A stretch of 64,000 bases of DNA, taken from positions 2,046,001-2,110,000 of the forward strand of contig NZ_CP033381.1 in the NCBI RefSeq assembly GCF_016865255.1, read 5' to 3'. Shown piece after piece: positions 7,956 through 61,552 of this stretch (positions are counted from its first letter, which is position 1; each line of letters opens with the position of its first letter). The notes beneath the pieces are model-generated. The model saw only the letters and a program-made list of their open reading frames with translations, was not told the origin of the DNA and did no database searches. This DNA comes from Methylomonas sp. LW13. GTDB taxonomy: Bacteria > Pseudomonadota > Gammaproteobacteria > Methylococcales > Methylomonadaceae. A program made the translations under genes and the position numbers.

Positions 7956-9005
7956 CTAGTCCTGCCGGTTTGGGCCGCAGCCGATCAGGGCTTCGCTGTT
8001 TAAATCCCAGAGCAGTTGCTCTGCGTCGCCGGCTTTAAGCCGCAACCGGCCACTGTCGTCAGTCTTGCCGATGGCCGCGCAAGCGATGCCGCGCAGGCTA
8101 AACAGTTCGATCACGTCGCCGGTGTCATGGGTATCGACGCTCAGCACGAAGCCGTAGCTGGGAAAGCAGCGCAACCATCTTGCCAAATCGATGTGGCTTG
8201 GACGCGGTATGGCGTTAATATCGATCACGCCGCCCAAACCGGAGCACTCCAACAGCATCAATAAGGTGCCGATTACGCCGGCATTGCTGATGTCCTTGGC
8301 GGCATCGCATAGGCCGGTTTCGGCCAGTGTTGGCAGGATTTCCAAATCTTGGCGTAGACGTTCCGGTGGCGCGCCGGTGCTGGCGTCCCACCACAAATAG
8401 GGTTCGCGAAAATGGCCGCGCAAATCGATGGCTGCCAGCAGTTGTTGTTCCGGTTTGGCGGCGAAACTGCTCAACAGTTTTTGCGCCCGACCCAGGATAG
8501 CTACCGATAATTGCGGGCGGTCGTTACGCAAATTGCTGTGGCCGCCAACCACCGGTACGCCGTAAACTTGCGCGGCAGTGGCCAGGCCTTCCAGTATCGG
8601 CTTGGCTTGGCCAGCACCTTCGCTCCAGATCGCATCGACCACCGCGATTGGCCGGCCGCCCATCGCGTAAATGTCGCTGACGTTGACCATCACGCCGCAA
8701 TAGCCGGCAAACCAGGGTTGGCTGGCGACGAAGTCATTCAAATAGCCTTCGCTTGCCAGCAACAGGAAGCCGTCGCCGTCGGGGATGGCCGCGCAGTCAT
8801 CGCCCACGGGTACATCGTTCCCACGCTCCGCGTGGGAATGCAAGCTGAACCGCTCCGCGGTTCGGGACGCTGGAGCGTCCGGGGCTGGGTTCCCACGCTG
8901 AGCGTGGGAACCATAGAGTCTTCCCACCACCTCGGCGATGTCGCGCTTATGCGCCAGCCCCAAGCCTTGTTGGATGCTCTTGGTCAATTCAGTCAATGAA
9001 CTCAT
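7956..9005 (-). CDS. AIR-synthase-related protein (sll0787 family) with palindromic repeat insert
   Basis: The 349-residue protein is of the PurM/SelD-like AIR synthase superfamily, in the sll0787 subfamily of Nit1-type clusters (NitF in Pseudomonas). The ATP-binding motif VGDDCAAIPDGDGFLLLASEG and the later VVGGHSNLRN are visible. The ATG at 9005 overlaps the stop of the preceding acetyltransferase as ATGA. A longer open frame reaching 9479 is only the shadow of that gene. Residues about 31-64 are not part of the family fold: they are encoded by a four-hairpin palindromic element lying in frame between the first helix and the VGDD motif. The protein should still fold if this segment forms a surface loop. 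Substrate unknown. Confidence 0.87.
   Translation of the reverse strand: MSSLTELTKSIQQGLGLAHKRDIAEVVGRLYGSHAQRGNPAPDAPASRTAERFSLHSHAERGNDVPVGDDCAAIPDGDGFLLLASEGYLNDFVASQPWFAGYCGVMVNVSDIYAMGGRPIAVVDAIWSEGAGQAKPILEGLATAAQVYGVPVVGGHSNLRNDRPQLSVAILGRAQKLLSSFAAKPEQQLLAAIDLRGHFREPYLWWDASTGAPPERLRQDLEILPTLAETGLCDAAKDISNAGVIGTLLMLLECSGLGGVIDINAIPRPSHIDLARWLRCFPSYGFVLSVDTHDTGDVIELFSLRGIACAAIGKTDDSGRLRLKAGDAEQLLWDLNSEALIGCGPNRQD
8816..8912. repeat. Four-hairpin palindromic repeat inside a coding gene
   Basis: Four hairpins follow one another without a break: TTCCCACGC/GCGTGGGAA (8818-8838), GAACCGC/GCGGTTC (8847-8863), GGACGC/GCGTCC (8865-8880) and GGTTCCCACGC/GCGTGGGAACC (8888-8912). Loops are 3-4 bases. 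The element is REP-like and shares its TTCCCACG stem with the hairpins at 59569-59590 and 61486-61507. It is read in frame as part of the AIR-synthase-like protein. Confidence 0.9.
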
Positions 9006-59467: not shown

Positions 59468-60015
59468 GTCACAACCATGTTAAAACGCGGCGCGGAGTGA
59501 CCATGCTAAGCCCCTTGTTGTTCTGGTCCCTACGGTCCTCCCTGGGAAGCCCTATTCGCCCGCATGCCTTCCCACGCAGGAGCATGGGAACGAGAGTATT
59601 CAGTCTGGCGCTGGCCGCAATGTGTTGCAGCGCGTGCCAGCCAGCTTTCATCGGCCATGACTCGGAAGCGACCGTAGCCAATGAAAACTGCTACGCCTAC
59701 CGCAACGGCGACAAATTGCGCAAAATCAATTTTGCCCAGGCCTTCGATTGGTGCCATCGTGCCGCCAATTTTGGCGATGCGAACAGCGAAGCCCTGCTGG
59801 GAGAACTGTATTACCTGGGGCTGGGCGGCCCACAAGACATGACGCTGGCGGCGCGCTGGTTCGAAAAAGCCGCTCGTCAAGGCCACGCCCACGCCCAATA
59901 CATGCTGTACCGGGTCTATGCCACCAGTCCCAATCTGGAACAACAGGAAAAAGCCGATTACTGGCTGAATCAGGCCCGCCATAGCGGTTACAAACTGGCC
60001 TTGCCGGCGCAATGA
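59464..60015 (+). CDS. Sel1-repeat lipoprotein with repeat element in its 5' part
   Basis: The 183-residue protein has a Sel1/TPR-like repeat core (FGDANSEALLGELYYLGLGGP, DMTLAARWFEKAARQGHAHAQYMLYRVYA, DYWLNQARHSGYKLA). The ATG at 59464 overlaps the secretin stop (ATGA), which supports this start. A palindromic repeat lies in the first 40 codons (LRSSLGSPIRPHAFPRRSMGTR). It ends at an in-frame ATG at 59584 that opens MGTRVFSLALAAMCCSACQP, a normal lipoprotein signal with a C-S-A-C lipobox. So the product may begin at 59584, with the first 40 codons being read-through of the element. Sel1 proteins are partner-binding scaffolds, and here it would serve the secretin. Confidence 0.7.
   Translation: MSHNHVKTRRGVTMLSPLLFWSLRSSLGSPIRPHAFPRRSMGTRVFSLALAAMCCSACQPAFIGHDSEATVANENCYAYRNGDKLRKINFAQAFDWCHRAANFGDANSEALLGELYYLGLGGPQDMTLAARWFEKAARQGHAHAQYMLYRVYATSPNLEQQEKADYWLNQARHSGYKLALPAQ
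59569..59590. repeat. Palindromic repeat hairpin at the start of the Sel1 gene
   Basis: TTCCCACGC (59569-59577) and GCATGGGAA (59582-59590) pair with one mismatch around AGGA. It belongs to the same TTCCCACG-stem family as the hairpins at 8816-8912 and 61486-61507. The arm contains the ATG at 59584. Confidence 0.75.
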
Positions 60016-60533: not shown

Positions 60534-61466
60534 ATGAAAGGCAAACAACTGAAAAGACTGCAACACAGACAAGCGGGTTTCACCTTACTGGAACTGCTGG
60601 TCGTTATCACGCTGATCGCGACGTTGGCGACGGCGGCATTGGTGGCGTATGACGGTATTGGCGACAGCGCGCAAGCAACTGCAGCGTCCAACAGTACCTC
60701 CACTGCTGACGGCGCGATTCGTAACTACCGTGCTGTTACGCAAAAATTCCCTGATCAATGGGATAACTTGGTAACAACCGCAGGTGCCAGCCCTGCATTC
60801 TTGTCTGATCGAACAGCTGCGCGGTTTGCCAACTGGGCGGTACCAGCATCCGCTTCTGCTTTTGGCATCGCATTGAACGACGCGATGGCGGCTGTCGGTA
60901 TTACGGAAATACAGGAACGCACCATTGCAACAATAACTGCTGGTGTTGAGCCCAACCTACAACATAACGAAGGTGCGGTAAACCGCGTAAGTCCTGGTGA
61001 CGCCGCCGAAAACGACTGGACGGCCGTCGCCAATGTCGCCATCCTGCCAACCTTTGGTACTGCGGCTTGCCAGGTCAACACAGTTGCACTGGGCGCTAAA
61101 CTAGACGGTTCCGCTATGGCGGCTACGGACGGTGATCGTCAAAACGTCATCAACGATTCACTGGAAAGCGACCAATGCAACTTGGTAATTGCTCTGGGCT
61201 TTGGTCACGATGCCGCGCATAGCACCAGCAATTCTTCTGTGGCTATTTCGACCGCGCCGACTTTCGTGAGCCAAAACATCAATCCTGCAACCACTTATGC
61301 TCGTTACATCGCCTTGTTCCACGTCGGTCAAGATGGCGCGAATGGGGGGGCCGAGGATAACAACATCGTTGCTGGTGAGTTGTTCACCAAACCCCGTCTG
61401 CTGGCGGTGGTTGACACCGAAGGCCGTATGATCGACGAAAACATCGCCGCTCAAAATCCTAACTAA
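60534..61466 (+). CDS. Prepilin-like protein (type IV pilin/pseudopilin)
   Basis: The 310-residue protein has a classical prepilin leader, MKGKQLKRLQHRQAG, cut before FTLLELLVVITLIATL, with Glu at position 5 of the mature protein. A large globular part follows, with a pair of cysteines (TAACQVN and SDQCNLV) that could form the disulfide of the D-region. It is larger than a major type IV pilin (about 150 residues), so a minor pilin, pseudopilin or special surface subunit is likely. A related partial gene lies at the window end, and the PglL gene between them suggests glycosylated pilins. Confidence 0.86.
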   Translation: MKGKQLKRLQHRQAGFTLLELLVVITLIATLATAALVAYDGIGDSAQATAASNSTSTADGAIRNYRAVTQKFPDQWDNLVTTAGASPAFLSDRTAARFANWAVPASASAFGIALNDAMAAVGITEIQERTIATITAGVEPNLQHNEGAVNRVSPGDAAENDWTAVANVAILPTFGTAACQVNTVALGAKLDGSAMAATDGDRQNVINDSLESDQCNLVIALGFGHDAAHSTSNSSVAISTAPTFVSQNINPATTYARYIALFHVGQDGANGGAEDNNIVAGELFTKPRLLAVVDTEGRMIDENIAAQNPN

Positions 61467-61483: not shown

Positions 61484-61507
61484 GGTTCCCACGGCCCGCC
61501 GTGGGAA
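61484..61507. repeat. Palindromic repeat hairpin after the prepilin gene
   Basis: TTCCCACGG (61486-61494) and CCGTGGGAA (61499-61507) form a perfect 9-bp stem with a CCCG loop, 18 bases after the prepilin stop. It belongs to the TTCCCACG-stem family of the hairpins at 8816-8912 and 59569-59590 and may end transcription. Confidence 0.8.
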
Positions 61508-61509
61508 TC

Positions 61510-61552
61510 CCTGCTAGCTCTGGGCTTTGTTGCAGAGTTTAGAGCTAGCAGG
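61510..61552. repeat. 12-bp inverted repeat after the prepilin gene
   Basis: CCTGCTAGCTCT (61510-61521) and AGAGCTAGCAGG (61541-61552) are perfect arms around a 19-base loop. It directly follows the TTCCCACGG hairpin. It could act as a terminator or a protein-binding site. Confidence 0.6.

What the first reader, a model, noticed from the sequence alone, without database searches (positions are those of the whole stretch)
8816..8912. Palindromic repeat read in frame inside a nitrilase-cluster enzyme gene
Four hairpins in a row sit inside the AIR-synthase-like gene, and the frame stays open through them. The protein gains about 34 residues between its first helix and the VGDD ATP-binding motif. 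Family members run directly from the helix to that motif, as far as I know. In-frame palindromic inserts in proteins are known mainly from Rickettsia (RPE). Here the same type of hairpin appears at two other sites of the window, so the element may be mobile and tolerated inside proteins.
Basis: partly seen in the sequence, partly recalled or inferred. Interest (0 to 1): 0.72.

Follow-up and report, generated by a model that had tools for sequence, protein, structure and literature searches.

The report
Hairpin repeat inside enzyme genes
A likely mobile hairpin-forming DNA repeat sits inside a predicted enzyme gene of a likely methane-eating bacterium without breaking its reading frame, adding 33 amino acids that are predicted to form a floppy loop, and the same repeat lies in frame in other conserved enzyme genes of related species, so such short DNA is a likely source of new protein linkers.

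Summary
Window 8814-8912 is a 99-nt pair of inverted double hairpins inside the sll0787-family AIR-synthase-like gene (TIGR04049). It is in frame and stop-free and adds 33 residues between helix 1 and the GDD motif. Of 120 listed homologs 5 carry the full dimer; 92 of the 107 with a readable linker have a short one. AlphaFold2's only segment under pLDDT 50 is 34-68, the insert. The genome holds 27 such hairpins against 1 in the reversed control, and RAYT transposase genes lie between inverted copies. The repeat is REP-like but lacks the GTAG tag of canonical REPs. HypF (also in this genome), NrdA (C-terminal tail), CobN, a PRTase_2-TRSP protein and NRPSs carry it in frame in relatives. At the AIR linker a relative (G064) carries an unrelated GTAG-tagged REP pair in frame. 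In AIR, stems inside the insert change less than loops. In-frame REPs in proteins are already published (Di Nocera 2013; Rickettsia RPE), so this is a new variant of a known kind, well documented across species. RAYT mobilisation and translation through the insert are inferred.

The parts
8814..8912 (-). Inserted codons 32-64 (33 residues, GSHAQRGN...SHAERGND) of the AIR-synthase-like protein; a REP-like dimer of two inverted double hairpins
   Evidence: only segment with pLDDT < 50 is 34-68
8818..8838 (.). outer hairpin 1, TTCCCACGC-TCC-GCGTGGGAA
8847..8863 (.). inner hairpin, GAACCGC-TCC-GCGGTTC
8865..8880 (.). inner hairpin, GGACGC-TGGA-GCGTCC
8888..8912 (.). outer hairpin 2, GGTTCCCACGC-TGA-GCGTGGGAACC; direct repeat of hairpin 1 at 72-nt (24-codon) spacing
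7956..9005 (-). host gene: sll0787-family AIR-synthase-like protein, 349 aa, ATG at 9005
   Evidence: TIGR04049 447.5 bits, cut-off 321.3; PF00586, PF02769
9002..9556 (-). neighbour: MSMEG_0567/Sll0786-family N-acetyltransferase; overlaps the start of the host gene by 4 nt
   Evidence: TIGR04045
9546..10658 (-). neighbour: MSMEG_0568-family radical SAM protein
   Evidence: TIGR04043
10636..11631 (-). neighbour: Nit6803-family nitrilase
   Evidence: TIGR04048
59562..59593 (-). degenerate copy of an outer hairpin
   Evidence: E 3.2e-5
61484..61510 (+). degenerate hairpin of the same type, 17 nt after the stop of a prepilin-like ORF
   Evidence: (E 0.057)

Best explanation
A REP-like pair of inverted hairpins, likely moved by a RAYT transposase, lies in frame inside the sll0787-family AIR-synthase-like gene and adds 33 residues that are predicted to form a disordered loop before the GDD motif. 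How it likely works: a HUH-type RAYT would cut and join the folded single strand, so that the copy lands without a target-site duplication (inferred; none is seen at the one filled/empty pair inspected, G210 against G165). Most insertions into genes would be lost; those whose net length is a multiple of three, free of stops and in a flexible linker or tail would survive. Afterwards the segment behaves as a loosely constrained linker: its codons show less protein-level selection than the flanks, recombination between the two outer hairpins (72 nt = 24 codons apart) likely collapses it to a short scar, and another REP family can take the same linker.
For: Insert present in 5 and absent in 7 of 12 genus copies. 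In-frame copies in unrelated genes: HypF in 4 of 27 loci inspected, 13 with short linkers, where solved HypF 3VTH aligns at residues 193 and 194 on either side of query 199-234; NrdA tail in 4 of 9 loci inspected, 5 empty; CobN, 22 of 24 proteins found with the insert peptide of a CobN (not a census); PRTase_2-TRSP and two NRPSs, one genome each. RAYT genes over the curated cut-off lie between inverted copies of the outer hairpin at three loci. pLDDT under 50 only at 34-68. Collapse: P0005 has the window protein's first 39 residues and then HVPVGDD, 24 residues shorter; G061 HypF keeps IVPTQSMGAM. Site reuse: G064 carries a GTAG-tagged palindrome pair in the same linker, a family clearly above its reversed control in G153, G165, G064 and G147.
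Against: No experiment shows transposition or that the protein is made with the insert. The element lacks the GTAG tag. The tree does not give one clean insertion: dimer-filled, GTAG-type and empty copies interleave, so recombination or repeated events must be added. Inserts were found largely by searching open frames, which favours in-frame ones. A peptide search among proteins of about 192-610 residues gave 5 proteins, all AIR. The low synonymous change in the insert is not explained by neutral linker evolution alone.
Confidence: 0.86

Rival explanations
1. The segment is not only a tolerated linker: the translated repeat is kept as a nucleic-acid hairpin, either because the mRNA or DNA structure does something for the host gene or because hairpin-templated correction at the replication fork keeps the arms matched.
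For: Synonymous change in the insert is below that of the 20 codons on both sides in 9 of 11 pairs (summed by hand over 6 of the 11, 11.5 of 156 sites against 52.5 of 146). Stems differ at 7 of 330 and unpaired columns at 17 of 150 sites in five pairs, and the true mask is the lowest of 96 circular shifts. G210 and G201 keep a perfect left stem through a C-G to G-C swap against G000.
Against: The stem signal comes from AIR (2 of 132 against 13 of 60); NrdA shows none (4 of 132 against 2 of 60) and CobN little (1 of 66 against 2 of 30). NrdA and HypF have lost the left outer stem. In two AIR pairs the upstream flank is at least as conserved as the insert, so local recombination can mimic the effect.
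Confidence: 0.35
2. The insert is part of the mRNA but is skipped (translational bypass), or translation starts after it, so it is not protein.
For: Strong hairpins inside a gene resemble bypass elements (recalled); a source gives the G201 relative (P0004) an inner start at MKYLSPHS, still before the insert.
Against: The filled orthologs found have no stop inside and stay in frame, which skipping would not require. The helix before the insert is conserved (L7, H19, K20, D22, I23 invariant in 58 rows); in HypF and CobN the insert lies in mid-protein and in NrdA near the C-terminus.
Confidence: 0.04
3. The segment is a native variable linker of the family whose palindromes are chance.
For: The linker stretch varies in the family (25-87 residues).
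Against: The DNA is a multicopy repeat in the genome and lies in unrelated genes with the same ends.
Confidence: 0.01
4. The gene is a decaying pseudogene in which insertions no longer matter.
For: Two relatives (G201, G210) hold a second insert-free copy, so redundancy can shelter an insertion.
Against: Flank pN/pS is 0.14-0.21 in three AIR pairs, 0.17-0.23 in HypF, 0.07-0.10 in NrdA and 0.09-0.10 in CobN; residues invariant in the 58-row alignment are kept; G000 has one copy.
Confidence: 0.05

Closest known systems
REP / REPIN elements with RAYT (TnpA-REP), including intragenic GTAG and CGTC REPs (Di Nocera 2013, PMC3733652; sections 5, 6, 15, 16 and part 1 of 17 read)
   Same: multicopy palindromes, inverted dimers, RAYT gene bounded by the repeat, intragenic dimers or groups encoding 20-30 residues
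   Different: no GTAG or CGTC tag at the ends (they read ATCG...CGAT); the nearest description there is RAYT-like genes flanked by untagged, some doubly palindromic inverted repeats ('TIRtrons'). Orthologous filled and empty sites with a second REP family in the same linker are not in the sections I read; its additional file listing decorated genes is unseen
Rickettsia palindromic elements (RPE; passages of PMC10969869, sections of PMC3733652)
   Same: palindromic repeats inserted in frame in unrelated proteins
   Different: other host class; PMC3733652 finds no transposase gene flanked by CGTC repeats, the class to which it assigns RPE-4 and RPE-6, whereas here RAYT genes are flanked. Sequences were not compared
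Enterobacterial repeat units RU-1/2/3 inside genes (PMC2759123, abstract and outline read)
   Same: small mobile units whose open reading frames are kept in annotated genes
   Different: described there as MITE-like; sequences not compared
Coding palindromes in Nematomorpha mitochondria (PMC6649704, search listing only)
   Same: perfect inverted repeats inside protein genes
   Different: mitochondrial genes of animals

Membership tests
RAYT-mobilised REP / REPIN | short palindrome present in many copies | tested here: met
   27 sites at up to 2 mismatches against 1 in the reversed control; 37 BLAST matches
RAYT-mobilised REP / REPIN | organised as inverted dimers | tested here: met
RAYT-mobilised REP / REPIN | RAYT gene bounded by the same repeat | tested here: met
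   ORFs of L056, L055 and L054 match NF047646 at 97.4, 100.9 and 96.5 bits (cut-off 80) between inverted hairpins. At L054 the outer hairpin is the same but the inner one differs. Pfam Y1_Tnp scores L056 and L055 below its cut-off of 23 (19.6, 20.8) and the genome search with it does not list them
RAYT-mobilised REP / REPIN | GTAG (or GTGG-like) tetranucleotide at the foot of the palindrome | tested here: not met
   copies end in ATCG/CGAT-like sequence; so I call the element REP-like, not a canonical REP
RAYT-mobilised REP / REPIN | mostly extragenic | tested here: inconclusive
   2 of 30 copy clusters in the fetched stretches lie inside an ORF that matches a curated family; ORFs over the other 28 were not family-searched
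RAYT-mobilised REP / REPIN | mobilised by its RAYT | not testable with these tools
   needs biochemistry
HUH-type (IS200/IS605-like) insertion | no target-site duplication | tested here: met
   G210 filled against G165 empty shows no flank repeat; one site only, judged by eye
Rickettsia palindromic element | in-frame insertion in unrelated proteins | tested here: met
Rickettsia palindromic element | sequence of a described RPE family | not tested
   no RPE sequence was compared; Rfam gave only a mir-1301 match at 20.5 bits, under its 63
GTAG-tagged REP (element in the G064 linker) | GTAG at the foot, inverted dimer, multicopy, RAYT nearby | tested here: met
   GTAGGCCGGAATAAGCC / GGCTTATTCCGGCCTAC arms; sites against reversed control: G153 27/1, G165 18/1, G064 10/1, G147 8/1, G000 6/2, but G210 2/4, G183 1/3 and G201 0/5. 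RAYT nearby was seen in G000 only: a Y1_Tnp ORF at 1887532-1888050 beside sites at 1887375 and 1887451

The most novel reading that the evidence does not exclude
Translated REP pairs are dual-coded: they serve as disordered protein linkers while their stems are still conserved as nucleic-acid hairpins, and certain linkers of core enzymes act as reusable docking sites that successive, unrelated REP families enter in frame and later collapse to short scars, so that REP/RAYT systems are a continuing source of protein linker evolution in methanotrophs.
Probability: 0.35. Interest if true: 0.78.

Novelty: new variant of a known kind. Interest (0 to 1): 0.6.

Why it matters
REPs are named for being extragenic. 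Here a RAYT-linked repeat lies in frame in several conserved enzyme genes, one of them ribonucleotide reductase 15 residues before its C-terminus, with filled, collapsed and empty states of the same site in related species. That makes an old idea (palindromic repeats as raw material for protein loops) testable in bacteria that can be cultured, and lets DNA-level hairpin constraint be separated from protein-level selection.

Tried and rejected
Stop-free design: I asked whether the repeat is unusually open in all six frames. It is not: 31 of 48 frames are open in 8 dimers against 28.8 expected in dinucleotide shuffles. Rejected.

Gene conversion from resident copies as the cause of low synonymous change: the best other full-length copies in G000 are 83% identical (shorter matches reach 91% over 56 nt), while the insert of G153 differs from the window's at 8 of 96 sites. 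Not favoured.

Single vertical insertion in AIR: the tree interleaves insert types (G153 with P0018; G147 with P0028 and P0011), so I do not claim it. In that script the labels E40, E44, E70 and the like of P rows are not linker lengths, because the pattern could match from the protein start.

Most look like spurious frames; none was family-searched.

Excluded from the list of decorated genes: L071 (no family), L087 and L090 (insert near the frame's start, possibly upstream of the true start), and L070, L072, L074-L077, which were not family-searched.

Left out of counts: HypF, G147 and G168 in the five pairs; 3 of 30 HypF loci (L129-L131) were not given, and 2 of the 27 given had no pattern match; one of 10 NrdA matches (G211, truncated) was not inspected; 13 of 120 AIR homologs did not fit the linker pattern. 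Empty CobN orthologs were not looked for. The flanks include sequence upstream of some true starts, so I quote instead.

Papers: the hairpin letters are in 223 papers, of which the 20 listed look unrelated by title; Methylomonas with REP and RAYT, and methanotroph with REP and transposase, gave none; the insert peptide is in none of the 8 papers listed. Passages only were read of PMC10969869, PMC3686654, PMC3116915, PMC6006769 and PMC8266576.

Full report
WHAT IS THERE. The window (G000, one contig of 5.23 Mb, window at 2046001-2110000) comes from a likely Methylomonas: its AIR-like protein is 99% identical to one named Methylomonas sp. OY6. At 8814-8912 the minus-strand gene 9005-7956 contains four hairpins in a row. 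The two outer ones have perfect 9-bp or longer stems (TTCCCACGC/GCGTGGGAA) and are direct repeats at 72-nt spacing; the two inner ones have 7-bp and 6-bp stems. Folding energy is far outside shuffles on both strands (z -8.6 and -7.4). The host gene is an sll0787-family AIR-synthase-like protein (TIGR04049, 447.5 bits) next to a nitrilase, a radical SAM protein and an acetyltransferase.

INSERT OR NATIVE? Alignment settles it. In the genus, five genomic copies carry the segment (G000, G153, G147, G210, G201) and seven lack it (G206, G165, G141, G183, G126 and the second copies in G201 and G210); G064, from another genus, carries something else. Among 120 listed homologs, 107 fit the linker pattern; 92 of them have 25-34 residues in that stretch, one of which (P0005) is a remnant, and 15 have more. 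Four of the five filled copies share the right junction NDV-P-V/I-GDD; G147 has two extra codons there. The left side differs: G210 and G201 keep KYLSPHSAEKI before the repeat, as in the empty G165, while G000, G153 and G147 do not. AlphaFold2 with 58 rows gives mean pLDDT 85.1 and a single segment under 50, residues 34-68, between helix 15-32 and strand 71-75. The fold matches PurL, ThiL, HypE and SelD.

A REPEAT FAMILY WITH A TRANSPOSASE. The genome has 27 hairpin sites at up to 2 mismatches against 1 for the reversed pattern, in 30 clusters by BLAST of the fetched stretches. At L056, L055 and L054, RAYT ORFs (NF047646, 96.5-100.9 bits, cut-off 80) sit between inverted copies of the outer hairpin; at L054 the inner hairpin is of another type. 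Two more at L053 are short and under the cut-off (67.6 and 49.6 bits). The ends of the repeat read ATCG...CGAT, not GTAG. The hairpin is also found outside methanotrophs: an exact 28-nt search of named genomes stopped at 120 rows; of the 80 shown, 76 are Pseudomonas and 4 methanotrophs.

OTHER GENES. Searching the 33-residue translation in 37 genus genomes and 237 family genomes and then identifying the long frames gave, besides AIR: HypF (4 of 27 loci inspected carry the dimer, read in a different frame; 13 have short linkers, 7 other long linkers, G061 a monomer-like remnant, 2 unmatched); NrdA, the ribonucleotide reductase large subunit (4 of 9 loci inspected, insert after the barrel domain and 15 residues before the C-terminus); CobN (G186, G110, G168, part in G192); a PRTase_2-TRSP protein between its two domains (G120); and NRPSs of G168 and G015. 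A database search with a CobN insert and nine CobN residues, limited to proteins of 0.55-1.75 times its length, gave 24 proteins, 22 CobN and 2 NRPS-type; the same with the AIR insert gave 5, all AIR. Empty orthologs were inspected for AIR, HypF and NrdA only. Solved HypF 3VTH aligns contiguously (193|194) across the insert.

WHAT HAPPENS AFTERWARDS. (a) Collapse: P0005 shares the window protein's first 39 residues (to GSHAQRGN) and continues HVPVGDD where the window has DVPVGDD 24 residues later, as expected from recombination between the outer hairpins 72 nt apart (protein only). (b) Replacement: in G064 the linker begins TATGGCTCCCAAG, like the left end of the repeat, and continues with a different perfect palindrome pair, GTAGGCCGGAATAAGCC...GGCTTATTCCGGCCTAC, also in frame (0 of 200 shuffles fold as well). 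That GTAG pattern is clearly above its reversed control in G153, G165, G064 and G147, weakly in G000, and not in G210, G183 or G201. In G000 a 172-aa Y1-transposase ORF lies beside two sites. P0011, P0018 and P0028 show a similar peptide, and P0008 is the G064 protein. (c) The tree mixes these states, so exchange or repeated events are needed.

SELECTION. Host genes are under purifying selection (flank pN/pS 0.07-0.23 in the 10 pairs). In the insert pN/pS is higher in all ten: 1.01, 0.28 and 0.44 in AIR; undefined (no synonymous change), 2.1 and 1.6 in HypF; 0.17 and 0.34 in NrdA; 0.19 and 1.1 in CobN. Unexpectedly, synonymous change in the insert is low: in 9 of 11 pairs it is below that of the 20 codons on both sides. 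In 6 of these pairs, chosen as near-independent and summed by hand, 11.5 of 156 synonymous sites differ in the insert against 52.5 of 146 in those flanks. Two AIR pairs have an upstream flank that is at least as quiet, so local recombination is part of this. In five near-independent pairs stems differ at 7 of 330 sites and unpaired columns at 17 of 150 (Fisher P 5e-5), and the true mask is the lowest of 96 circular shifts. The signal comes from AIR (2 of 132 against 13 of 60); NrdA shows none (4 of 132 against 2 of 60) and CobN little (1 of 66 against 2 of 30); HypF was not counted. Either the hairpin is useful as nucleic acid or arm-templated correction keeps it; I cannot tell which.

MECHANISM. 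Shown: in-frame, stop-free insert; multicopy repeat; RAYT bounded by it; filled, empty, collapsed (protein level) and replaced states. Inferred: RAYT-mediated single-strand insertion without target duplication, survival only in flexible linkers, translation through the insert.

PRIOR ART. Di Nocera 2013 (PMC3733652, sections 5, 6, 15, 16 and part 1 of 17 read) already reports REP monomers and dimers inside ORFs of free-living bacteria, suggests that linkers or loops tolerate them, and describes RAYT-like genes flanked by untagged inverted repeats. The RPE review (PMC10969869, passages) and Delihas (PMC2759123, abstract) report related cases. New here, as far as the searches in open-licence papers show, are this untagged family in methanotroph enzymes, the cross-species filled/empty/collapsed series, the second REP family in the same linker, and the stem conservation inside a translated copy.

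Noticed in passing
window 59562-59593: A degenerate hairpin of the same family whose right arm (GCATGGGAACGAG) would supply the ATG of a lipoprotein-like ORF (MGTRVFSLALAAMCCSAC...).
   Followed up: partly
window 61484-61510: A hairpin of the same type 17 nt after the stop codon of a prepilin-like ORF (60534-61466), in the usual extragenic place.
   Followed up: partly
L135 and L136 (G201, G210): Both genomes hold a second, insert-free copy of the AIR-like gene beside the insert-bearing one.
   Followed up: partly
L106-L111 and L128 (HypF): Seven of 27 HypF loci carry other long linkers (84-115 residues from the second zinc finger to KGLGGF) at the same place; their origin was not traced.
   Followed up: no
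P0012: Its linker SPHPDPLPKGEG and its C-terminus PLPQGEGVG look like translations of yet another palindromic repeat; only the protein is at hand.
   Followed up: no
L032 1450-1510 (G153): A different palindrome (CCTCTCCCTGAGGGAGAGGGG) lies just downstream of the AIR-like gene in G153.
   Followed up: no
G000:C1:1887375-1888050 (L261): A GTAG-tagged REP pair beside a 172-aa Y1-type transposase ORF, so at least two RAYT/REP systems likely share this genome.
   Followed up: partly
loci (L141-L260): The same untagged hairpin is common in Pseudomonas, often as inverted pairs about 72-105 nt apart; the letters CCCACG do not occur in the main text of PMC3686654, which lists 22 REP classes of fluorescent pseudomonads.
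   Followed up: partly
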